This document shows positions 1-50,745 of a stretch of DNA of 64,000 nucleotides, piece after piece; position 1 is the stretch's first letter, and the number at the start of each line of letters is the position of its first letter. The stretch comes from Caenorhabditis elegans (Eukaryota; Nematoda; Chromadorea; Rhabditida; Rhabditidae), in NCBI RefSeq assembly GCF_000002985.6, contig NC_003282.8:1674001-1738000 (forward strand), given 5' to 3'. Position numbers and translations under genes: made by a program. The notes below the pieces were generated by a model that saw only the letters and a list, made by a program, of their open reading frames with translations, was not told the origin of the DNA and did no database searches.

Positions 1-2113
1 TGTCCTTTTTCTATGGTTTCCATTTTTATTGGCAATTGAACGAACCTACGCATCGCAGAATTACGAGTCCTATGAGACGAATGAATTTCCGACGTTTGTC
101 GAAATTTCGTGTGGAGTTATGTGGTTCCCGGTAGTTTCGGAGATCATAATTTTTGTGTTCACTTGGGGAATACCGTCGAATCTCCAGGCTTGCCAATACT
201 CACTTCTGCAGAAGACTAGTATGCAAAGAAACACGTGGTTTGTGATAATTGCCTCGTTTTCCGTGTGTTTCTCCGTTTTCTTCAAGTTACTGGAAATGGT
301 GAGTTTTGACCTCAAACAAGTTTTAGTTTTATTTTAAGAAATTCGGGTGAAAAATTTAAATTTTCAAAAAAAAATTTTGTTTCAAAAAAAGTGACTGAAA
401 ATTAAAAAAAAAAGTAATTTTGTTAAAACTGACGAAGTTTTTTTTAAAAAATGTCTTCTTTTTTAAATTTTCTGACGGAAATTTCCGTATTTAAATTTTA
501 CAAAATAATTTTGGCTGGAATTTTCGTATTTTTAATTACAACCTTCAAAAACAAAATACGATTTCAAAATTTCTGGCTTAAACTTTGGCGTAGGCTTAGG
601 TGTAGGCTTAGGCTCAGGCATAGGCTTAGGCTTAGGCGCAGGCTTAGGTTTATTCTCAAGCTTAGGCTTAGGCTCAAGCGAGGCTGGGAGGAGGGAAGGA
701 GAAATTTTTTCAGAATTTCTGGAATAAACCAAAAAAGGAAAAACGACGAAAAATGGGAGAGTTGATCTCAAATTTTCATTTTCACGAAATTTCAGCTGAA
801 AACTTTAATTTTATTATGCCTGAATAATTTCCCGCAAAATTCAAATTTCAAATTTTCAGAAAAAAATCCAAATTTGGAAATTTTCATATATTTTAAAATG
901 TTTTTAGAATCGGGAAATGATCTAAAAAATTTTTTTTATTTTTTAAATTTATTTAGATCATTTCCCGATTCTAAAAACATTTTAAAAGATATGAAAATTT
1001 CCAAATTTGGATTTTTTTCTGAAAATTTGAAATTTGAATTTCGCGGGAAATTAATCAGGCATAATAAAATTCAATTAGTTTTCTTTCAAAGTTCAAAACT
1101 GAAATTCTCAACCAAATTAATTTTTTTCAGAAAAACAAGGCAATGGAGATTCAATTGTACAATGATTACGTGTTCAGTGCCCGATTTCAAGTTCGTGAAA
1201 ATATCAAGACATGCCGATTTGCGTGCGGGCTCCTTCTCCTTTTCTTCACATTTTTCTTCATTTTCTTCATTTTCGATAGGAATTTGGAGACTAGCGATGA
1301 ATCTCGAATGGCTTCTGCGGCTAGAAGGGTAGGTTGGAAATATATAAAAATTTCAAAAATGTTTAATATTCTGAACAAAGTTATTCAGAAACCTTTTTTT
1401 TAAATTGTGCTGAAAATGTTCGAAGTGAGATATTTTTGAATTTCACGCTTTAAAAAAAATTTCAAATTTTTACTATTTTTTCAAAAATATTCAAACTTTA
1501 CAGTTAGACAATTAAAAAAGTTGTAATTAAAAAAATTCAAAAATTATGAAATAATTGAGTTTCGCGTCAAAATTTTTAATTTCCTGATTTGCTTTTCATG
1601 AAAAAATAAAAATTGCTTGAAGTGTTGAAAAAAAGGTCATAATTTTCTAATAGTTTTAAAAGAAAAAGTCCCTTTTCCCAATATCCAATATTTTTTCAGG
1701 AGTACTTATTTTTGATCTTCCCAATGTTTGCACTTGTTTATTCATTACACTTCTTAACCGCCAACTCTTCACTGTTTGAAACAGCCAAGCGAACTCTACA
1801 ACAGTACTACTATCAGGAACATGGTAAGCAACAGGGGTGGGCGCAAACGATTTTTTCCGGCAAATCGGCAAATTGCCGAAATTGCAAATTTCCGCCAATC
1901 GACAAATTACCGGAATTAAACATTTCCCTGTAAATTGGCAAACTGGGTACATTGCCGGAATTAGACATTTCCGGCGAATTGACAAACCGGCAAATTAACC
2001 GAATTAAAAATCCCCCTGGTTTAAATTGATTTTAATTAGTTTATTCTGCTGAAATTTAAAAATTTAACAGTTTTATAGGACGCCGTCTACGTGTCAAAAT
2101 CCGTGAATTTTAA
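1..2113 (+). CDS. Serpentine chemoreceptor, Sre-like, 5'-truncated by the window edge
   Basis: This is the 3' part of a seven-transmembrane chemoreceptor, expected in sensory-neuron membranes. Exons read by phase are 1(partial)-298, 1131-1328, 1700-1823 and 2079-2113, ending in TAA. The first exon is open from the window start and carries AIERTYAS followed by NYESYE, the ER/AS/YE pattern typical after TM3 of the Sre class. It is followed by two hydrophobic segments. Exon 2 contains NDYVFSARFQVRENIK, the cytoplasmic sequence usual before TM6 in this superfamily, then a Phe-rich membrane segment. Exon 3 is the last membrane helix. The tail is EHGRRLRVKIREF. All junctions keep frame (phases 0, 0, 1). 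Assignment to Sre rather than Sra, Srab or Srb is from motif memory. The gene is convergent with the next one. Confidence 0.72.
590..684 (+). repeat. Degenerate TTAGGC array
   Basis: About 95 bases of imperfect TTAGGC units, with variants such as TCAGGC and GCAGGC, lie in intron 1 of the chemoreceptor. The unit is the nematode telomere repeat. It is degenerate and intronic, so this is an interstitial array. Confidence 0.9.
806..1073. repeat. Intronic palindrome
   Basis: Two arms of about 120 bases are reverse complements around a spacer near 940. For example, ATCGGGAAATGATCTAAA on the left is mirrored by TTTAGATCATTTCCCGAT on the right, and the outer ends read TTATGCCTGA and TCAGGCATAA. It lies inside chemoreceptor intron 1 and could be a small foldback element. 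Confidence 0.8.
1850..2010. repeat. GGCAAATTGCCGG-type repeat copy
   Basis: Many copies of GGCAAAT, TTGCCGAA and ACATTTCCGG-like motifs fill chemoreceptor intron 3, beside GGGTGGGCGCAAACGATTTT. It belongs to the same family as the copy at 40,464-40,809, where both ends can be seen. Confidence 0.8.
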
Positions 2114-2719: not shown

Positions 2720-5700
2720 TCACAAAAGAGTCTCGTAAGGAGAATTTAAGGAGCATTTGTGCTTATTCCGAGGCTCCGAAATTGTGGCAATCGGCATTGT
2801 TTCAGAATGATTTGCATCTCCTCTACTCTGAAAAAATACTATTAATTGAAAATTGAGAAAAAATCGACAAAAATCCAATTTATTTGAAGCCTAAAATATA
2901 TTAAAACTATTTAATCAATAAGTGGAAAAATTATTTACAAAAGTTGATAAGATCGATAACTAGGCTTAGCCTTAGGCTTAGTCTTAGGCTTAGGCTTAGG
3001 CTTAGGTTTAGGCTTACGCTATGGCTTAGGCTTAGGCTTACGCTTTGTCTTAGGCTTAGGCTTAGGCTTAGGCTACAACTACAGAATTCAATTATATGGA
3101 AAACAGTCAAAAGTCCAAAAAAATCAATAAAGTCGAAAAAATCGATAATTACCATTTCAATTTCGAATCAATTTTATCCAAAATTTAAAAAATCTCACCA
3201 AAAAGCTCGTGTCGGTTTCCACGGATTTCAGACGTTCCACGTATTTTTCGTCTGCTCTCGGGTTCTGAAAATATTAGCGACTTTATTAAACAATTTTCAA
3301 AATTAACAACAAAAAATTTGGAAAAAAAGGAGCCGATAGAAAACTCACACATGGAACACAGAGTCGTTTGAAACGACACAGAATTTCACGGCGAAGAACT
3401 GGCTGACAGTACAGGTAAATTGGAAGGCGGGCGGCGCAAGCCATTGTTGTGAGCAGGGATACCAAATCGATTAGTACGATGTATAGGCTGAAAATTTTCG
3501 AGATTTTAGGATTAGGAAGTCTATATAAAAAAAGGTTTAAAATTTAAATTTAAAATTTAATTTGACAGCTCATAACTCAGCTGTACTGGATTTTATCAAA
3601 AAGTTGTCAATTAACAACATGTGCATGAAATCTTGTTCTATAATCAAAAACTAACCATTATTGTTGTATTTTAAATGAACCGTGATATGAAACACCAAAG
3701 TTAAAGAGTACAAAATATGGTGCATAGACCATTATTACATTTGACAGCTCATAACTCGACTAGATATAGTTTTATTAAAAATTTGCAATTAACAAAATTT
3801 GCGTTAGATCTTTTTCAATAATTTTGTACTTTGGAACTTTTTGATATTTTTCACGTAAACCAGAATATTTTCAATTAATGTAGAGAGAGTCCTAGATGCA
3901 CCATCTCGGCATTCAGAGGCAACTTCCTGCCACACTTTGGCAACTTATTTAGTGCCACTAAAATAAGTTGCCGAATTGCTGGCAGGAAGTTGGCGAGTTG
4001 TTGGCAGGAAGTTGCCACGTAGTGGCAGCAAGTGGGAAAGAAGGCTCAGCAACATCTAAATGTTGGCAGGAATGTGCAAAAGTTTGGCGGGAAGTTGCAA
4101 GTAAGCAAAGTTTGGCAGAAAGTTGCCTCTGAATGCCGAGATGACAAAAATATGTATTTTAATACATTTTGCAAAATAACACCCCAAACGGCAAAATGAC
4201 AATTTTCCAAAAATGAAAATTTCCGGCAAATCGGCAAACCGGCAAATTGCCGTTTTGCCGAACTCGTCGAAAAATTCCGGAAAATTAACAATTTGGTGAA
4301 AATGAAAATTTCAGGCAAATCAGCAATCCGGCAATTTTCCGATTTGTCGAAAACTTTCGGAACGGCAAATTGACAATTTGCCGAAAATGAACATTTCCGG
4401 CAAATCGGCAAAGTGCCGGAACTGAAATTTCCCGCCAAATCGGCAAACCGGCAATTTTCCGACTTGCCGAATTTGTCGAAAATTTCTGGAACGGCAACTT
4501 GACAATTTGCCGAAAAAAAAAAATTCCGACAAATCGGCAATTCGCTGGAGACAAAAAATTCCGACAAATCGGCAGTTTTCCGAATTGCCGAATTTGCCAA
4601 AACATTTCGGCCGAATTTGTCGAACATTTCTGGAACGGCAAATTGATAATTTGCCGAAAATAAAAAATTTTGGCAAATCGACAACTTGCCGGAATTGAAA
4701 ATTTCCGGCGAATTTGCGAATTGCCGAAATTAAAAAATCCCGGTAAATTGGCAAACAGGCAGTTTGCCGATTTGCCGATCTTGCCGGAGAAAATTTGCCT
4801 TGCCGAGCGGCAATTGTCGCTCACCCTTGCCCCAGAAGATAAACTGGTGAAGCTGAGAAAAAATTGATTACTTTTTTGTCGATGCACCATAACATTAATC
4901 TCAATTGAATCATCAAACCTACTCTGGATAGTCCACGACAAGCTCATTATTAGTCTGCTCCAGCGATGTCAGTGTCACATTGATAATATTCGACACAAGA
5001 TAACAACATCCAACCATCACCAGTGTCCTAGTAGCAGCACGGGCACTTGCCTGAAAAATTCAATTTTCTACAAAGCTACTATCCCCTTAAAACACAACCT
5101 TTCTCTTCTGCAAATCCTCAGTATTCCCATTAGTGACAAGGCATACTGTGGCAGTTGTGTAGGTCGTCAGTGCTTTCACAATTCGGACGTTCAGGTAGAG
5201 AAGGATAAAGAATGGGGCAAAGACTGTCACAAAGTTCCGGTACCAGAAACGGAAAAGGTAATGGTATTGAGTTTCCAGTACGAACGGGCGGAATTTCATG
5301 GTGGTTGCCATCATTTGACCCTCACATTGCTCATGGTGCACGAGCTGGAAAAATATATACTGCATCACCAGGCGGCAGGATGAAGGCAGTGCCTGCCTAG
5401 CCGCAAAATTAGGGCTCACATGTGGGCAAAACGATCCGAATCTCATAAGCGATGCGCGGAGCCAATTTGCACCAAATAGTGCCATACCCTATCGCACTAT
5501 CTGGTGCAAAAGCGTCCGACACTTTTTGGGCTCCACGCGCGTCGCTTTAAAGGTTTGGGTCGCGGCGTGAGAGCGGCGTGGGAGCCCTATCCAAAATATA
5601 GAAAACTGCGAATTGAGCAGTGCATAAATAGTAGGTATGCAAGTAGGTAAGTAGGTAGGCACATAGGTACCTTCGTGAGACCTACCTCAAACTCAATGGA

Positions 5701-15054: not shown

Positions 15055-15325
15055 TAGGGCCTAAGCCTATGCCCAAGCCTAAACCTAAGCCTAAGCCTAA
15101 TACTAAGTCTGAGCCTGCGCCTAAGCATAAGCTTAAGCTTAAGTCTAAGCCTAAGCCTCAACCTGTGCCTAAGCATTACCCTAAGCCTAATACTAAGCCT
15201 AAGCCTGAGCCTAAACCTAAGCCTAATACTAAGCCTAAGCCTAAGCCTAAGCCTAAACCTCAACCTGTGTCTAAGCATAAGCCTAAGCCTGAGCCTAAGC
15301 CTAAGCCTGCCTAGACCTTAGCCTA
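15055..15325 (-). repeat. Degenerate TTAGGC array, reverse orientation
   Basis: About 270 bases of GCCTAA units on the + strand, the longest such array in the window. Variants (GCCTGA, GCATAA, ACTAA) recur in blocks, showing internal duplication. The KPKPKP-type ORF is an artefact. Confidence 0.92.
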
Positions 15326-15649
15326 AGTCAATAAATTATACATAACAAACAATACGTTCGGAAAAAAGTTGTAGAGCAAAAAAAAGTTTCTGTGGCGCCA
15401 GGAGAGAGGAAAAAGTAGACGGAAAGTAAACTCAAAGGTCCCCCTCCCCACAGAATTTTATTTCCTGTTTTATGATGACACATTCACCTCTGTGTGGACC
15501 ACTTTTATCTTTTTTTCTTTTCTTTTGTCGTGAATTCTTCTTTTTTGCAGGTTCAACTTGTGTATTGATACTTTCTTTGAAAAAGTTCACTGAATTCAAT
15601 TTTTTCTCACCGTTGCTAAAGTTAACTCAAAAATGTAGAAAATAGGCTA

Positions 15650-28884: not shown

Positions 28885-28985
28885 ATTTAGGCTCAGGCTT
28901 AGGCTTAGGCTTAGGCTCAGGCTTATTCCTAGGTTTGGCGTCAGTGGGGGAGCGTTAGCTATTTAGGGTTAGGATTACAGCGTTT
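28885..28985 (+). repeat. Short TTAGGC array with associated flank
   Basis: About eight units of TTAGGC/TCAGGC are followed by GGCGTCAGTGGGGGAGCGTT and AGGGTTCCCGTTGG. The same flank occurs beside the array at 50,475-50,745. Confidence 0.85.
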
Positions 28986-30794: not shown

Positions 30795-31971
30795 ACCCTC
30801 TTAAAAAGTTACAAGAAGGTTTTTCCTTGCGCTTGGAGCGCAAAAGAAAAGAAAAAGAGCTATTTAGACTTAGGGTACCCAACTGGAATAAAACATTGGA
30901 AATCCTTATGACACGCTTAAGCCTAAGGGCCCGAAAAAAAAACTAGGATGCCCAACTGGAATAAAATATTGGAAATCCTTATGACACACCGGCGGTATGG
31001 CGCGGCTTAAGCCTAAATAGCCACTTTTATCAAAATACATTTGAGCGAGGCGGTTGTAAACTATTCGTTCTTTAGCAAAAATAAAAAAAAAACTTTATTT
31101 AAACTTAAAAATAAATATCATATGTTATCACACCTGAGAATATCACGCCTTAATTTAGTAATCATTTTAGTTCATAAGTGTGAGAGAAAGAAAAATGGAT
31201 TAATCATCGGAATTAGATATCATCAGAGTGATTATATTCATCAAAGGTCCCACTTTACTTGAGGGTTAATTTGGTTGATATAAAATTCCTATCTCATGTA
31301 AAGAAAGGTTCGAATTCTGTACCTATGAATGCTGCCGATATTTGAATTCCTGTCTCATGGGAAGAAGGCCTTTCTTGTGGGAAGAACGGAGTTATAAAAA
31401 AATATACGCAGGTACAGAATTTGAACTTTTCTTCCCATGAGATAGGAATTTGAATATTGGCATTCTATAACTTCACTAAGAAAAAAATCTCCAAAGGTTG
31501 ATCGCAAATATGTAGAGATTGCTCGCATCCCTTCAAATATTACGAAATTTCCAAGTTTCTTAGTAATAATCTTCCTTCAGATTACTGAAAAATATCCACA
31601 GATTACTTTTGAGTTGCCTGAGAAGTTATTGTAAAACGCAAGACGAGCTCAAATGTATTTTGATAAAAGTGGCTATTTAGGCTTAAGCCGCGCCATACCG
31701 CCGGTGTGTCATAAGGATTTCCAATATTTTATTCCAGTTGGGCATCCTAGTATGTTTTTCGGGCCTTTAGGCTTAAGTGTGTCATAAGGATTTCCAATAT
31801 TTTATTCCCGTTGGGCATCCTAGTTTTTTTTCGGGCCCTTAGGCTTAAGTGTGTCATAAGGATTTCCTATATTTTATTCCAGTTGGGCACCCTAAGTCTA
31901 AATAGCTCTTTTTCTTTTCTCTTGCGCTCCAAGCGCAAGGAAAAACCTTCTTGTAACTTTTTAAGAGGGTT
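30795..31971. mobile_element. 1.2-kb palindromic element
   Basis: The outer ends AACCCTCTTAAAAAGTTACA and TGTAACTTTTTAAGAGGGTT are reverse complements. The arms of about 230 bases include CTTGCGCTTGGAGCGCAA and the internal repeat ATAAAATATTGGAAATCCTT, present two to three times per arm. The spacer around 31,041-31,640 has its own mirror (CCTATCTCATG/CATGAGATAGG). The right end runs straight into a TTAGGC array. Confidence 0.8.
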
Positions 31972-32172
31972 AGGCTTAGGATTAGGCTTAGGAATAGGCT
32001 TAGGCTTGGTCTTAGTCTTAGGCTCAGGTTTATTCCTAGGTTTAGGCTTAGGCTTAGCTTTAGGCTTAGGCTTAGGCTTAGACTCAGGCTTATTCCTACG
32101 TTTAGGCTTTGGCTTTGGCTTATTCCCAGGTTTAGGCTTAGGCTTAGGCTTAGGCTTAGGCTTAGGCCTATT
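31966..32172 (+). repeat. Degenerate TTAGGC array
   Basis: About 200 bases of TTAGGC units with TTTGGC, TTAGCT and GGAATA variants. The Gly/Leu ORF across it is artefactual. Confidence 0.9.
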
Positions 32173-41398: not shown

Positions 41399-43429
41399 AC
41401 AAAATACTATAGTTACCTAAAAACGGTAAAACTGTTAAGAAATGGGCGGAGCTTAATAGGTTGTGTACTTAGCTTAGGAAATTAGTTGAGCCAAACTATT
41501 GATAAGTAGGCTCCGCTCATATCTTGGCTATTTTTCTTTTTTTTTAATATTCTTAACTACGGAATGATAGAAAAAGAAGTAACAAATATTTTGTTAGTTG
41601 AAAATTTTTGAATAGCACAAACGATAACTGAGATATAAGATGTCAATGTTGAACAATTGGGTGCAATACTACTCATAGAAGAAACACGGTAATTGTCGTC
41701 TCTATCAGAACAGACCCCCACTCTCTCCACAGAAATTTGTTTTTCTCTGAAAATGCCCATCGAATGTCCCCAAATGCACCTGAAATGTCTTTAACCTTCA
41801 TACAAATTGACCGTCACGAATAAAATTGAAGAAATTTGGCCGCCGGCGTCCTTCGGTCTTGCCTGTCAAGCGGAAATCATTGCACTTTTTACAACCATAC
41901 CATCTCGAGAGAGACATACATAAATAGCCGCCGAAATTGTCGAATTTTTTATTTATTTTTCACACACCACATACTGGAACTGGTTTGTTCTTTGAACGCA
42001 GCAGGAATATAGCAACAGAAAATAAAAGAAATAACAACAAATGAGGAACAAGAATATAAAAAATGGCAGTGAAAATTTGGTTTGATCATTGACATAGTTT
42101 GTGACCTTTAATTGCGGTCAGTATTAGTTTGGCGAAAAAAAAAAACGATGTTTAGAATCCGTATAGGGTGTGGCAATTGCAATTATACATGTCATCAAAA
42201 ATATGATACATACGTCAAAAAAAACGACGTGTACCTTTAAATTTTTGGGTAAAATAATTTTGAAACCTATTGAGAGTATTCAGCAAAAAGGCTGAGGCTT
42301 AGGCTTAGGCTTATGCTAAGGCTTAGGCTTAGATTTAGGTGGGCTGGTGCTGAACTTTAATTTTACATTGTTTATGGAAAAACGACAGTTTGAAACGATT
42401 TCAAGAAAAGTTGCTTTCAAATTTTCGAATTAAAAAAAAAATTAGATGCAAAAATAGATCATTTTTTATGACTCTCAAACGAATATTTTTTGCATGAATT
42501 GTAATATAGTTTGACATTTTTCAAAAACGCTTTTTTTATTTAAAAAAAACTGAAAAAAAGTTTTCGACTCATCTGAACTTATCAGAAAGAATTTGATTTG
42601 TATTCATTTTCCATGAGTTCAGCTTGAATTTTATAGTGTTTTGTGAACATGGATACAATTGTAGGTCATTTTCAAAAAACTTTTTGTTTTTTCGGGAAGA
42701 ATGTTTCACTTTTTTACTGTTGAAAACTTGAGTTAATTTTTTAAAAACATATGTTGAACTATGATATTTTGGAGTTCTGTAGTTATGAGAACAATTTTAG
42801 CTCTTATCCAAAATATACACTTTTTGTGCAGAATACGTCAGGGGAAATGAATTTTTAAGCCAAAAAAATGTTTTTCATCATTTTTCAGAAACAGCTTGAA
42901 GTTTTTTATTTTACAATTTTGCAGAATATGAAGCACATTCCAACCAATTTCAGCGTTTTCTGTGGAAATTGAATCACTTTTTTTTTTCGAATTCGTCATC
43001 ACATTCTCGAGTTGTAATTTTGCTTATTTGTTCTACATGTGACTATCTATGTTGGCGACTTTAGCCAATAGAAAATAGAGAATAACCTTGGGAAATTTTC
43101 GAAAAAAACTTTTTAAAATTTGGTGAAATTTTTTTCACAAAAAGCTTATTGCCGAAAATTCTAATTTCTACTGATTTTCGGTAACAGAATTTGAATTCTA
43201 AATTTTCAAGCTCAGTGTCTCAGCCCTCCAAAAAAATGAATTGTCAAAATTTCCAGTAATCAGTATTTCCAGCGATTTCCAAAATTGTTGAATTCCAAAA
43301 AATTTCTAATTGTAGATTGCCGGAAATCAGAATTGCCGGAAACTTAAATTTGGTATTTTTTGTAGTTTTAGGAGCCTAAATATTCATTCTAATGAGCTGA
43401 AAATTATTTATTGAAAAATGATTAAAAAA
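41399..43429. other. AT-rich gene-free stretch
   Basis: There is a short degenerate TTAGGC array at 42,293-42,335. The rest is A/T-rich with no coherent exons. Confidence 0.5.
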
Positions 43430-46285: not shown

Positions 46286-46806
46286 CATGCTGCCCTCATC
46301 TTAGGAAACACCCACTTTTTATGAAAATCCGCAAGCTCTGCGTTACCTCAAAATATGCCACTAAAATTTTATAAAAAAAAACCTCCTTAAAATTCTGAAT
46401 AGCGTATAAAATTCCTTGTGGCTATTACGTTTCCATCCCGATAAAATGTACAAATGGCACAATAGTTCGGTAAAAATCAAACCAAGTAAACAATTGTTCG
46501 ATCGAATTTACGTCGATCTCAAATTTGTCCTCCCTCTTCCCAAATCAAATTAAAAGTGTTTAAAGAACCGAATCGTTTTTTTATGGTTTGTTTCGTACTC
46601 TCAACAATTTTCTCTCTCGCTCTCTTCTCGAACTTATCAATGACGTCTCCCAGAAAAGGCGGAGACTCCGTACGGTTTTTTTGGCGGCGGCTACTGGAAT
46701 CGCCCTCAGATTGCGCGAAATATTGTGCGTGAGACACAAAGGTCACTCTCGACACTTTATACACTATTTTCTACTCGCTGCTTTCAATCACAAACTTGGG
46801 TTTGGG

Positions 46807-46812
46807 TATAAA
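46807..46812 (+). promoter_or_regulatory. TATA box of the YGDE repeat-protein gene
   Basis: TATAAA in GGGTATAAAGGCTAC lies 65 bases upstream of the ATG at 46,877, a good spacing for a TSS near 46,840 with a short leader. A TTTTCTCTCTCGCTCTCTTC tract at 46,607-46,628 is a pyrimidine/GAGA-like upstream element. Confidence 0.55.
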
Positions 46813-46876
46813 GGCTACTCGTAATGGCCAGTAAGACCACTGTCGACTCGAATAGTGTCCATCAGCCAAAAACAAC

Positions 46877-48934
46877 ATGAAGGTGTTTGTATTCCTCTCC
46901 ATCGTTGCCATCGCTTCTTCTCGCTACGGTTAGTTTGTTCGTTTTCTTATAGTTTATTTTCTATTCTTTGTACTTTTAGTCGTGAAGAGAAATGCTTATG
47001 GAGATGAGCAAGTGACTCCAGCTCCAGCAGCTTCTGCACCAGCCCCAGCCGACGCTCCAGTAGAACAAGCCCCAGTTGCCGTCCCAGCCCCAGCTCCAGC
47101 CGCTGCTCCAGCCCCAGACTGCGGATCAGCTGCCCCAGCACCAGCTGCCCCAGCCGCCACTGATTCCGGATACAGAAGCAAGAGAAACGCCTACGGAGAT
47201 GAACAAGTGACTCCAGCTCCAGCCGCCGCCGCTGAAGCCCCAGCCGATGCCCCAGTCGAGCAAGCCCCAGTCGCCGTCCCAGCCCCAGCTCCAGCTGCTG
47301 CTCCAGCCCCAGACTGTGGATCCGCCGCTCCAGCTGCTGCTGCTCCAGCTGCTGCTGCTCCAGCCGCCACTGATTCCGGATACAGAAGCAAGAGAAACGC
47401 CTACGGTGATGAGCAAGTGACCCCAGCCCCAGCTGCTGCTCCAGCTCCAGCCGATGCCCCAGTTGAACAAGCTCCAGTTGCCGTCCCAGCCCCAGCTCCA
47501 GCTGCCGCCCCAGCCCCAGACTGTGGATCCGCCGCCCCAGCTCCGGCTGCTCCTGCCCCAGCCGCCACCGACTCCGGATACAGAAGCAAGAGAAACTCTT
47601 ACGGAGACGAGCAAGTGACTCCAGCTCCAGCAGCTGCTGCACCAGCCCCAGCCGATGCCCCAGTTGAACAAGCCCCAGTCGCCGTCCCAGCTCCTGCTCC
47701 AGTCGCTGCTCCAGATGTTGAGTGTGGATCCGCTGCTCCAGCTCCAGCTGCTGCTGCTCCAGCCGCCACTGACTCTGGATACAGAAGCAAGAGAAACTCT
47801 TACGGAGACGAGCAAGTCACCCCAGCCCCAGCTGCTGCTCCAGCTCCAGCCGATGCCCCAGTTGAGCAAGCCCCAGTCGCCGTCCCAGCTCCAGCTCCAG
47901 CTGCCGCTCCAGCTCCAGACTGTGGATCCGCCGCTCCAGCCCCAGCTGCTGCTCCAGCTGCTACCGACTCTGGATACAGAAGCAAGCGAAACGCTTACGG
48001 AGACGAACAAGTAACCCCAGCTCCAGCCGCCGCCGCTGAAGCCCCAGCCGACGCTCCAGTTGAGCAAGCTCCAGTTGCCGTCCCAGCCCCAGCTCCAACC
48101 GCCGCTCCAGCTCCAGACTGCGGATCCGCTGCCCCAGCCGCCACTGATTCCGGATACAGAAGCAAGAGAAACGCCTACGGAGATGAACAAGTGACTCCAG
48201 CTCCAGCCGCCGCCGCTGAAGCCCCAGCCGATGCCCCAGTCGAGCAAGCCCCAGTCGCCGTCCCAGCCCCAGCTCCAGCTGCTGCTCCAGCCCCAGACTG
48301 TGGATCCGCCGCTCCAGCTGCTGCTGCTCCAGCTGCTGCTGCTCCAGCCGCCACTGATTCCGGATACAGAAGCAAGAGAAACGCCTACGGTGATGAGCAA
48401 GTGACCCCAGCCCCAGCTGCTGCTCCAGCTCCAGCCGATGCCCCAGTTGAACAAGCTCCAGTTGCCGTCCCAGCCCCAGCTCCAGCTGCCGCCCCAGCTC
48501 CGGCTGCTCCTGCCCCAGCCGCCACCGACTCCGGATACAGAAGCAAGAGAAACGCTTACGGAGACGAGCAAGTGACTCCAGCTCCAGCCGCCGCCGCTGA
48601 GGCCCCAGCTGATGCTCCAGTCGAGCAAGCCCCAGTCGCCGTCCCAGCCCCAGCTCCAGCTGCTGCTCCAGCCCCAGATTGTGGATCCGCCGCCCCTGCC
48701 CCAGCTGCCCCAGCCGCCACTGACTCTGGATACAGAAGCAAGAGAAACGCCTACGGAGATGAGCAAGTGACCCCAGCCCCAGCTGCTGCTCCAGCTCCAG
48801 CCGATGCCCCAGTTGAGCAAGCCCCAGTCGCCGTCCCAGCCCCAGCTCCAGCCGCTGCTCCAGCCCCAGACTGCGGATCTGCCGCCCCAGCTCCAGCTGC
48901 TCCAGCCGCCACCGACTCCGGATACAGATCTTAA
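46877..48934 (+). CDS. Secreted Ala/Pro-rich precursor with ten YGDE repeats and RSKR cleavage sites
   Basis: Two exons, 46877-46928 and 46980-48934, give 668 aa. The N-terminus MKVFVFLSIVAIASSRY is a signal peptide. The rest is ten repeats of 57-70 residues. Each starts KRNAYGDEQVTPAP (KRNSYGDEQ in repeats 4 and 5), continues through DAPVEQAPVAVPAPAP, then usually a single Cys in DCGSAAP, and ends TDSGYRS. Each junction therefore reads SGYRS/KRN, an R-x-K-R furin-type site. Repeat 8 lacks the Cys segment. The protein ends after the tenth SGYRS. Interpretation: a secretory polyprotein cut into about ten similar acidic Pro/Ala peptides, or an extracellular matrix or cuticle protein. The function is unknown. 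Strong codon bias (CCA for Pro) suggests high expression. I believe it falls in the K08D12 clone set but assign no symbol. Confidence 0.9.
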
Positions 48935-49040
48935 AACCCTTCAAAATGTTGTTCACAAATCTCAGCGAACTGCCAGTCAAACTTCTCATCAGGAACTAAT
49001 AATCTAGATTCGATTTGATAAAAAGTATTCTAAAAAATGA

Positions 49041-49046
49041 AATAAA
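49041..49046 (+). terminator. Poly(A) signal AATAAA of the YGDE repeat-protein gene
   Basis: A perfect hexamer lies about 107 bases after the TAA at 48,932-48,934. Confidence 0.6.
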
Positions 49047-49198
49047 ATCGTTTAAAACTAAACTGATAACTGGTTTTTCTTTTTTTCTGTTTTGTTAGCC
49101 ACTAACGGTTAGCAAATGCTGCGTCATGTATTAGAAATCGCAAGTTGTGGACGGAAAACCTTTATCATTGAGAACACACAATTTAATTGAATCAGAAA

Positions 49199-50143
49199 TC
49201 AGTAACCACTGGATTCGACAGCAGTCTTGGATCCTCCCGAGTTTTCCACAGTCACAGCAGGCGCTTCAGACACTTCAACGACCTGTGCTCCTCCGCCAAC
49301 TGGAGCTTCATCTCCATACCCGTTTTGACTGGCTCGCTTCTTCCGATATCCAGAGCTTTCGACGTTCGATTGTGCTCCAGCGCCTTCTGGGGCCACGGTC
49401 GCCGGTGCTTCCTGGGGGAAGATGGAATATTATTGTGAATCGTGAAAAGGGCATGGCATTTTTATATGAGGGGCGAGCGGCAATTGCCGTTCAGCAAACT
49501 TGTTGATGGCAAATCGACAAAGTTAGCCGACTTGCCGGCCATGTTTATTTTTGGCAAGTTGCCGATTTGCCAAACACCAATTTGCCGGAAGTTTCTAGAG
49601 GGATTTTTTATGAGACGAAAACACTTATAACAGTGCATTTTTTAAAAATTTTTTTCCTCGTTTTCTTAAGAGATTTTCATAAAATTTAATTACTTTTCAA
49701 AATCTGATTAAAGTTGAAATTCTGAAATTGCCAAAAAAAAATGCAAAACCACAATTTGCCGGTTTGTCGGTAATTTTCAATTCCGGCAATTTGTCGATTT
49801 GCTGGAAATATTAAGTTCCGGCAATTTGTCGATTTGCTGGAAATATTCAGTTCCGGCAAGTTGTCGATTTGCTGGAAGTATTCAATTCCGGCGATTTGCC
49901 GATTTGCTGGAAATATTCAGTTCCGGCAATTTGCCGATTTGCCGGAAATTTTCAACACTTAAAATTCCAGAAAATTACCTCTACGGCCATCGAAGCCACG
50001 CGTGCACCTCCGCCAGCCGGTGTCACAGCTTCATCACCATAACTGTTGTCAGCCCGTCGTTTTCTAGTCAGACCAGCAGCAGTCACACAGCCAACAAGCA
50101 ATAATGTTAGAATAAGTCGGTTGGAAATGGAAGAAGCAGCCAT
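49199..50143 (-). CDS. Small secreted YGDE-module protein, convergent paralogue
   Basis: Two exons, 50143-49979 and 49411-49199 (phase 0), give 125 aa. Residues 1-23 form a signal peptide (ILTLLLVGCVTAAG core). It is followed by LTRKRRADNSYGDEAVTPAG, a dibasic site then a YGDE motif. Exon 2 has ESSGYRKKRASQNGYGDEAPV, a second site plus YGDE. The protein ends TAVESSGY before TGA. The layout SGYR-x-KR ... YGDE and the terminal SGY match the ten-repeat gene 265 bases away tail-to-tail. This looks like an ancestral or reduced form with two modules. The intron (49,412-49,978) carries a GGCAAATTGCCGG-type repeat. Probably secreted; function unknown. Confidence 0.85.
49480..49970. repeat. GGCAAATTGCCGG-type repeat in the YGDE paralogue intron
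   Basis: It includes a local tandem of four to five copies of a ~39-base unit (TCCGGCAATTTGTCGATTTG then CTGGAAATATTCAGT) at 49,780-49,950. Confidence 0.85.
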
Positions 50144-50474: not shown

Positions 50475-50745
50475 ATAAGCCTAAGCCTAATAACCATAAA
50501 TAGCGTTGCTAACGCTCGCCACTGACACCAACAAGGGAACCCTCTGAAAATTGTTCTCCGCGTCTCTTGATTTTCAGTACTTTCTCAGACTTCTGTTGAA
50601 AAACTATATTTGTAAGCCGAAGCCTGAGCCCAAGTGTAAGCCTAAGAAAAAGCCTGAGCCCAAGCCTAGGCCGAAGCCTAACTCTAAGCCTAACTCTAAG
50701 CTTAAGCCTAAGCGCAAGCCTATGCCTAAGCCTAAGGCTATAATT
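50475..50745 (-). repeat. Two-part degenerate TTAGGC array (reverse)
   Basis: A short GCCTAAGCCTAA block at 50,475-50,490 is followed by GCTAACGCTCGCCACTGACACC and AGGGAACCCTCTG. A longer array of GCCTAA/GCCTGA units then runs over 50,613-50,745. The intervening flank matches 28,935-29,010 in reverse. Confidence 0.85.

What the first reader, a model, noticed from the sequence alone, without database searches (positions are those of the whole stretch)
46877..48934. Ten-repeat secreted YGDE precursor with a furin-type site at every repeat boundary
A signal peptide is followed by ten near-identical Ala/Pro-rich repeats. Every boundary reads SGYRS/KRN, giving R-x-K-R. After cleavage each fragment would start with N-A/S-YGDEQV and end with SGYRS or its trimmed form. 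This is the layout of a polyprotein for peptides or of a processed matrix protein. I recognise no described family for the YGDE module.
Basis: partly seen in the sequence, partly recalled or inferred. Interest (0 to 1): 0.75.

Follow-up and report, generated by a model that had tools for sequence, protein, structure and literature searches.

The report
Worm skin protein with cut sites
The gene is the already named roundworm skin protein EPIC-2 (an epicuticlin); what seems not to have been pointed out is that its repeats, like those of its relatives in other roundworms, are bounded by a protease cut signal, which suggests the protein may be chopped into small pieces before the outer skin layer is built.

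Summary
Window 46877-48934 encodes a 668-aa protein of ten Ala/Pro-rich repeats, with RSKR at 9 of 9 internal boundaries. The gene is not new: it is C. elegans epic-2 (K08D12.6), one of three worm epicuticlins described in 2022 and studied genetically in 2024; epic-3 lies tail-to-tail beside it. So "no described family" is wrong.

The processing idea is the live part. I found no statement of it in the papers I could search, and comparison supports it. In 29 family proteins (several are fragments or near-duplicates), 75 of 75 non-terminal GYR motifs are followed by x-[K/R]-R. P3 takes ten residue types, P2 is K or R, P1 is always R. KR or RR also precedes the first unit in 25 of 25 proteins whose first YGDE has no GYR before it. 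20 of 29 proteins end at SGY or at GYR plus one residue, without KR; 9 end otherwise.

Best reading: epicuticlins are tandemly repetitive polyproteins, cut by BLI-4 (or KPC-1) into ~55-70-aa units with a Tyr near each end, then cross-linked into the outer cuticle. Cleavage is inferred, not shown. Main rival: an uncut disordered cross-linker whose basic motif serves binding.

The parts
46877..46928 (+). epic-2 exon 1: signal-like sequence (MKVFVFLSIVAIASSRY)
46929..46979 (+). 51-bp intron of epic-2
   Evidence: GTTAGTTT...TTTTAG
46980..48934 (+). epic-2 exon 2: VVKR plus ten epicuticlin repeats, TAA at 48932-48934
46985..46990 (+). dibasic KR before repeat 1 (V-V-K-R; no Arg at P4)
46991..47185 (+). 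unit 1, 65 aa, ends RSKR
47186..47395 (+). unit 2, 70 aa, ends RSKR; nucleotide-identical to unit 7
47396..47593 (+). unit 3, 66 aa, ends RSKR; 97% nt identity to unit 8 over 57 aligned codons
47594..47794 (+). unit 4, 67 aa (NSYGDE start), ends RSKR
47795..47989 (+). unit 5, 65 aa (NSYGDE start), ends RSKR (last Arg codon CGA)
47990..48169 (+). unit 6, 60 aa, ends RSKR
48170..48379 (+). unit 7, 70 aa, ends RSKR
48380..48550 (+). unit 8, 57 aa, ends RSKR; no Cys
48551..48745 (+). unit 9, 65 aa, ends RSKR
48746..48931 (+). unit 10, 62 aa, ends SGYRS-stop, no KR
49041..49046 (+). AATAAA, possible poly(A) signal of epic-2
   Evidence: read directly
49199..49411 (-). epic-3 (K08D12.7) exon 2: one RKKR boundary, then a YGDE unit ending SGY-stop
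   Evidence: tail-to-tail order stated in PMC11529277
49979..50143 (-). epic-3 exon 1: signal-like sequence, R-K-R-R site, first YGDE
   Evidence: splice inferred from frame and GT/AG (125 aa in all), not checked against an annotation

Best explanation
This is epic-2, an epicuticlin of the C. elegans outer cuticle. Shown here: a signal-like start, a dibasic site, then ten acidic Ala/Pro-rich units separated by R-S-K-R, and the same R-x-[K/R]-R pattern at every boundary examined in the family proteins found. Inferred: during secretion from epidermal cells a proprotein convertase (most likely BLI-4, possibly KPC-1) cuts after each [K/R]-R, and a carboxypeptidase may trim KR. The product would be about ten 5.1-6.2 kDa acidic units, each with a Tyr near each end (NxYGDE..., ...SGYR) and, in nine of ten, one Cys between. 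Such two-ended units could be re-joined by dityrosine (and disulphide) bonds at the cuticle surface. The gene would then be a tandemly repetitive polyprotein of the kind known from nematode polyprotein allergens and filaggrin. The identity as epic-2 is certain; the processing step is a prediction.
For: Identity: coordinates, length and repeat features match K08D12.6/Q8MXU8. Boundaries: looking upstream of every Y[G/E]DE, without requiring Arg or Lys, gave 72 of 72 internal boundaries as GYR-x-[K/R]-R in 27 proteins (EPIC-3 was mis-spliced in that script and gave no row). From the GYR side, with EPIC-3 corrected, 75 of 75 non-terminal GYRs in 29 proteins fit; 73 of these lead into a YGDE, two (P0016, P0027) run into other sequence. 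At these 75: P1 only R (0 bits), P2 67 K and 8 R (0.49 bits), P3 ten residue types (2.42 bits) (P4 Arg was required by that scan, but was free). R at P2 occurs in 6 of 29 proteins, K at P1 in 0 of 29 (Fisher p 0.023, not corrected for relatedness). Where the first YGDE has no GYR before it, KR or RR still precedes it, 25 of 25 proteins; in EPIC-3 and seven relatives this is R-x-R-R. 20 of 29 proteins end without KR, 7 within one residue after GYR and 13 at SGY (EPIC-3). Published Ascaris EPIC-1 boundaries are RKKR or RRKR. [quoted passage not shown]); epic-1/-2 are epidermal.
Against: No cleavage product was seen in anything I read. The site before unit 1 lacks P4 Arg in 17 of 25 proteins. GYR-x-KR-x(2-6)-YGDE could be conserved as one binding motif: Betschart et al. 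predict a molecular recognition feature there. C-terminally tagged EPIC-2 is found in cuticle and in a soluble fraction, which does not need cleavage. Mutants lacking epicuticlins have near-normal cuticle morphology with mild barrier and wound defects, so a strict need for units is not evident. 9 of 29 proteins do not end at SGY/GYRx: P0003 (labelled partial) stops inside a unit, P0016 and P0027 run past a basic site into other sequence, and P0005, P0009, P0012, P0024-P0026 look like fragments or gene-model run-ons (my judgement). kpc-1 RNAi gave no furrow-collagen phenotype alone or with bli-4, and PMC10538796 says direct proof of BLI-4 cleavage was not obtained for collagens either. Repeats and species are not independent data.
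Confidence: 0.6

Rival explanations
1. Uncut epicuticlin. The full-length disordered chain is secreted and cross-linked through Tyr and Cys; R-x-K-R is the basic core of a recognition/binding motif (GYRxKR...YGDE) alternating with acidic linkers.
For: Published view: disordered protein with recognition features at SGYRKKRNNAY and dityrosine cross-linking. Tagged proteins localise to cuticle. In 7 proteins checked, 0 or 1 Lys/Arg after the first YGDE lies outside the boundary motif, which also fits a polyampholyte linker.
Against: A charge or binding role does not by itself explain a free P3, K or R at P2 and only R at P1, nor the dibasic site kept before the first repeat without GYR, nor the R-x-R-R version there in EPIC-3 relatives.
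Confidence: 0.27
2. Partial processing: only the short stretch between signal peptide and repeat 1, or some boundaries, is cut; arrays of several units persist.
For: NPA arrays also hold units that are not separated (PMC3079579). EPIC-3 has R-K-R-R before unit 1.
Against: In EPIC-2 the internal sites (RSKR) match the furin consensus better than the first site (VVKR), so internal cutting should be at least as likely.
Confidence: 0.1
3. A secreted signalling-peptide precursor (neuropeptide-like).
For: Signal-like start, repeats, dibasic sites.
Against: Trimmed units of 55-68 aa; 0 of 75 boundaries have an amidation Gly at P3; the proteins localise to cuticle and the transcripts oscillate with the moult.
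Confidence: 0.03

Closest known systems
Epicuticlins (Asu-EPIC-1/2/3; Ce-EPIC-1 F11E6.3, EPIC-2 K08D12.6, EPIC-3 K08D12.7)
   Same: This gene is EPIC-2 itself: signal peptide, two exons, tandem KR...YGDE...GYR repeats, acidic, Ala/Pro-rich.
   Different: No difference in identity. The parts of the literature that I saw treat the basic tetrad as a hydrophilic patch in a recognition feature and do not mention cleavage between repeats.
Nematode polyprotein allergens (ABA-1, DVA-1, gp15/400)
   Same: Tandem arrays with regularly spaced K/R-x-K/R-R sites; a nematode-made polyprotein.
   Different: NPA units are folded, helix-rich lipid binders made in gut and reported as separated; epicuticlin units are short, A/P-rich and epidermal, and separation is unproven.
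Profilaggrin/filaggrin
   Same: Epidermal repetitive precursor cut into units, named with NPAs as the best characterised such polyproteins. PMC11529277 compares epicuticlins with filaggrin, but its Discussion does not speak of processing.
   Different: No sequence relation was tested or shown here.
C. elegans cuticle collagens with BLI-4-type sites
   Same: Same tissue, RxxR convertase consensus.
   Different: One N-terminal site releasing a collagen domain, not one site per repeat.

Membership tests
Epicuticlin | Signal-peptide exon followed by one exon of tandem repeats | tested here: met
   signal peptide by eye and from the papers, no predictor run
Epicuticlin | Each repeat has YGD(E) at its start and GYR at its end, one Tyr in each | tested here: met
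   10 of 10 units have two Tyr; sequences
Epicuticlin | Acidic, Ala/Pro-rich composition | tested here: met
   pI 4.21, A+P 53-62% per unit
Epicuticlin | Intrinsic disorder | not tested
   published prediction; no disorder program run here
Epicuticlin | Located in outer cuticle | not testable with these tools
   published for EPIC-2::mNG
Pfam GYR motif PF02756 | HMM match | tested here: not met
   no PF02756 row for 3 and 10 proteins at E<=1 (EPIC-1 is in both calls); so short a model may be lost in HMMER's filters. The literal tripeptide GYR is present.
Tandemly repetitive polyprotein | Tandem similar units with a convertase-type site at every boundary | tested here: met
   9 of 9 in EPIC-2; 75 of 75 in the family proteins found
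Tandemly repetitive polyprotein | Units physically separated in vivo | not testable with these tools
   needs Western blot or mass spectrometry
Nematode polyprotein allergen | NPA domain in each unit | tested here: not met
   EPIC-2 matched 0 Pfam families at E<=1
Neuropeptide precursor | Short units, often with amidation Gly before the dibasic site (recalled) | tested here: not met
   0 of 75 Gly at P3; trimmed units 55-68 aa

The most novel reading that the evidence does not exclude
Epicuticlins are a third class of animal tandemly repetitive polyprotein: the epidermis secretes a string of two-ended units, BLI-4/KPC-1 cuts it at every repeat, and the freed units, with a Tyr near each new end, are re-joined by dityrosine into the outermost cuticle. 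Cut-then-relink could make a sheet rather than a fibre, and would mean that C-terminal knock-in tags report only the last unit.
Probability: 0.45. Interest if true: 0.7.

Novelty: new variant of a known kind. Interest (0 to 1): 0.45.

Why it matters
If true, the structural unit of the nematode epicuticle is a ~60-aa fragment, not the long repeat protein assumed so far. That would change how the published C-terminal mNeonGreen localisations and repeat-number variation are read, add a non-collagen candidate substrate for BLI-4, and give a cuticle example of tandemly repetitive polyproteins, called rare in nature and of mysterious adaptive value (PMC3079579). It is testable with existing strains. 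The gene itself is already known, which limits the surprise.

Tried and rejected
Novel family: rejected. Neuropeptide precursor: disfavoured (no amidation Gly, long units). Long antisense frame (604 codons) over the array: I put it down to codon composition; not tested further. Pfam: no match for EPIC-2. In relatives, PF15929 Myofilin in P0003 and PF17548 p6 in P0013 pass their cut-offs and others (DUF1373, DUF2255, DUF6851 and more) do not; I take them for low-complexity matches. A search of the own genome with EPIC-3 exon 2 returned EPIC-3 and EPIC-1 only (7 matches); it did not return EPIC-2, so it does not exclude further paralogues. Structure prediction was not run. Ascaris sequences were not among the hits; only motifs quoted in PMC9612446 were used.

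Limits of the hit set: searches scored only the 7,997 and 7,995 candidates sharing most words, and their queries held KR. One search used one repeat without the boundary KR and found four new proteins, of Pristionchus type, 10 of 10 boundaries fitting (counts). P0004 had a weak E-value (2.2e-3) and was not returned. P0006/P0008 and P0012/P0025/P0026 look like near-duplicates or fragments; none was dropped from the counts. P0015 has two GY motifs inside units that lack Arg; they stand at no boundary. One search printed 'P4=R 2' for first sites because its expression took the first KR of RKRR; the figure of 8 is from the R-x-[K/R]-R list of the same call, without P0005, whose R-A-K-R lies further upstream.

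Proteins without an organism name: P0005, P0008, P0009, P0013, P0015, P0016, P0020, P0025-P0027. One search failed (term too short). One search stopped on a file-name error (mended) and mis-spliced EPIC-3 (mended).

Full report
IDENTITY. A pattern search placed the window at 1,674,001-1,738,000 of contig C4 in a 100,286,401-bp genome. A full-text search for YGDE with elegans led to two epicuticlin papers. PMC9612446 (outline, sections 3, 7, 11 and 17, part 1 of 2 of section 12, and passages seen) gives C. elegans K08D12.6 at chr IV 1720790-1723072 forward, 668 aa, ten repeats of 57-70 aa, motifs KRNAYGDEQVT and DSGYRS, one Cys per repeat except repeat eight, pI 4.21. That range is window 46790-49072. 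Length, repeat number, motifs, Cys pattern and pI are reproduced here. The same paper notes the WormBase names epic-1, epic-2, epic-3 for F11E6.3, K08D12.6, K08D12.7. The minus-strand gene at 49199-50143 has the same modules and is tail-to-tail with epic-2, as PMC11529277 says of epic-3.

WHAT IS KNOWN. PMC11529277 (outline with abstract, sections 7 and 12, and passages seen) reports C-terminal mNeonGreen knock-ins: EPIC-1 and EPIC-2 near the cuticle surface, in alae, annuli, interfacial cuticle and adult struts; epic-1/-2 transcripts oscillating in larval development and detected in epidermis; mutants viable with mild barrier and wound-survival defects. Tagged protein was seen in soluble cuticle preparations by Western blot, but the main text gives no size.

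IS CLEAVAGE IN PRINT? In the main text of PMC9612446 the strings furin, cleav, dibasic and processing do not occur; the basic tetrads RKKR/RRKR are described as hydrophilic regions and lie in predicted recognition features. In PMC11529277 furin occurs 0 times and cleav once, for the signal peptide. Four papers of the library hold the word epicuticlin; in the passages seen of the review PMC11304992 (12 of 17 places) and of PMC13181417 (10 of 10), convertase cleavage is discussed for collagens, ZP proteins or MLT-11, not for epicuticlins. Searches by gene and motif name, by BLI-4 with epicuticl- and by polyprotein/furin/profilaggrin terms listed nothing that I recognised as stating it; most papers in those listings were seen as listings only. 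The library holds open-licence PMC papers only; Bisoffi 1996 and all supplements were not read.

THE PROTEIN. Exon 1 encodes a signal-like MKVFVFLSIVAIASSRY; then VVKR, then ten units. All 28 Lys/Arg downstream of the first YGDE fall in GYRSKR boundaries or the terminal GYRS. Of eight proteins given to this test, six (EPIC-2, EPIC-1, P0003, P0004, P0010, P0011) have none outside, P0002 has one, and the EPIC-3 line is void because of a splicing slip; read from the corrected EPIC-3, that protein has two outside (one Arg, one Lys). The other 21 proteins were not tested for this. Units 2 and 7 are identical over 210 nt and units 3 and 8 are 97% identical, so a two-unit block was probably copied recently; unit 8 lacks the Cys segment. 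Other pairs differ mostly at synonymous sites (759 synonymous, 91 non-synonymous codon differences over all 45 pairs).

COMPARATIVE TEST. Three protein searches gave P0001-P0027; with EPIC-2 and EPIC-3 that is 29 proteins, from Caenorhabditis, Auanema, Diploscapter, Pristionchus, Steinernema, Gongylonema, Thelazia and sources without a name. Two scans were made. From every Y[G/E]DE looking upstream without requiring Arg or Lys, 72 of 72 internal boundaries in 27 proteins read GYR-x-[K/R]-R. From every GYR, 75 of 75 non-terminal ones in 29 proteins are followed by x-[K/R]-R, and the other 7 stand within one residue of the C-terminus. P3 takes ten residue types, P1' eight, P2 only K (67) or R (8), P1 only R (75). 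This is the pattern a convertase would impose: Arg at P1 and P4, basic at P2, free P3. The spacer from P1 to YGDE varies from two to six residues in the sequences seen. In 25 of 25 proteins whose first YGDE is not preceded by GYR, KR or RR stands just before that unit; in EPIC-3 and seven relatives (six Caenorhabditis species, one unnamed) it is R-x-R-R. The dibasic site thus goes with the start of a unit, not with GYR. 20 of 29 proteins end without KR, 7 within one residue after GYR and 13 at SGY; the other 9 end differently, in my judgement mostly as fragments or faulty gene models.

LIMITS OF THE TEST. Repeats within a protein evolve together and species are related, so 75 of 75 is not 75 independent trials; the P1-versus-P2 contrast (0 versus 6 of 29 proteins, Fisher p 0.023) ignores relatedness and would weaken if the Diploscapter-like fragments were merged. 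Two of three searches used queries containing KR and were capped. P4 Arg is part of the published GYR motif and may be kept for other reasons. In 17 of 25 proteins the first site has no P4 Arg and would be a poorer furin site.

MECHANISM. Convertases fit the place: of four C. [quoted passage not shown]), and mutation of RxxR sites impairs or blocks secretion of several cuticle collagens (PMC10538796, PMC13225626, passages), although cleavage by BLI-4 was not shown directly there and kpc-1 RNAi had no effect on the furrow collagens. After cleavage each unit would have Tyr at position 3 and Tyr as the third residue from its trimmed end. Antibodies to dityrosine label the Ascaris epicuticle, and the GYR and YGD tyrosines were proposed as its sites. 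So cut units could be re-linked end to end and sideways. This chain (cut, trim, relink) is inference; only the site pattern is shown.

COMPARISON. By working principle the nearest systems are the nematode polyprotein allergens, with regularly spaced K/R-x-K/R-R sites, and filaggrin; PMC3079579 (passages and section 19 seen) calls such tandemly repetitive polyproteins rare and their adaptive value mysterious. EPIC-2 is not a member of the allergen family by the test made: no Pfam match.

VERDICT.

Noticed in passing
window 47126-48940, minus strand: A 604-codon open frame runs antisense to the epic-2 array (Trp/Gly/Ser-rich); probably a result of Pro/Ala codon use on the other strand.
   Followed up: no
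window 47186-47593 and 48170-48550: Units 2-3 and 7-8 look like a recent block duplication (units 2 and 7 identical over 210 nt); unit 8 lacks the Cys-bearing segment.
   Followed up: partly
window 49752-49954: 35-bp tandem repeat (5.8 copies) inside the epic-3 intron; related-looking CGGCAAAT-type repeats recur elsewhere in the window.
   Followed up: no
window 575-674, 2961-3074, 15059-15327, 28887-28925, 31966-32167, 42289-42332, 50613-50740: Interstitial arrays of degenerate TTAGGC-type (telomere-like) hexamers.
   Followed up: no
P0003, P0013, P0014, P0011, P0012: Epicuticlin-like proteins of other nematodes carry misleading labels: Myofilin or p6 Pfam hits (P0003, P0013), SETD2 methyltransferase (P0014), DUF4794 domain (P0011, P0012; no DUF4794 match at E<=1).
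   Followed up: partly
EPIC-3, window 50143-49979, and P0017-P0023: EPIC-3 types put a full R-x-R-R site directly behind the signal-like sequence, where EPIC-1 and EPIC-2 have only KR.
   Followed up: partly
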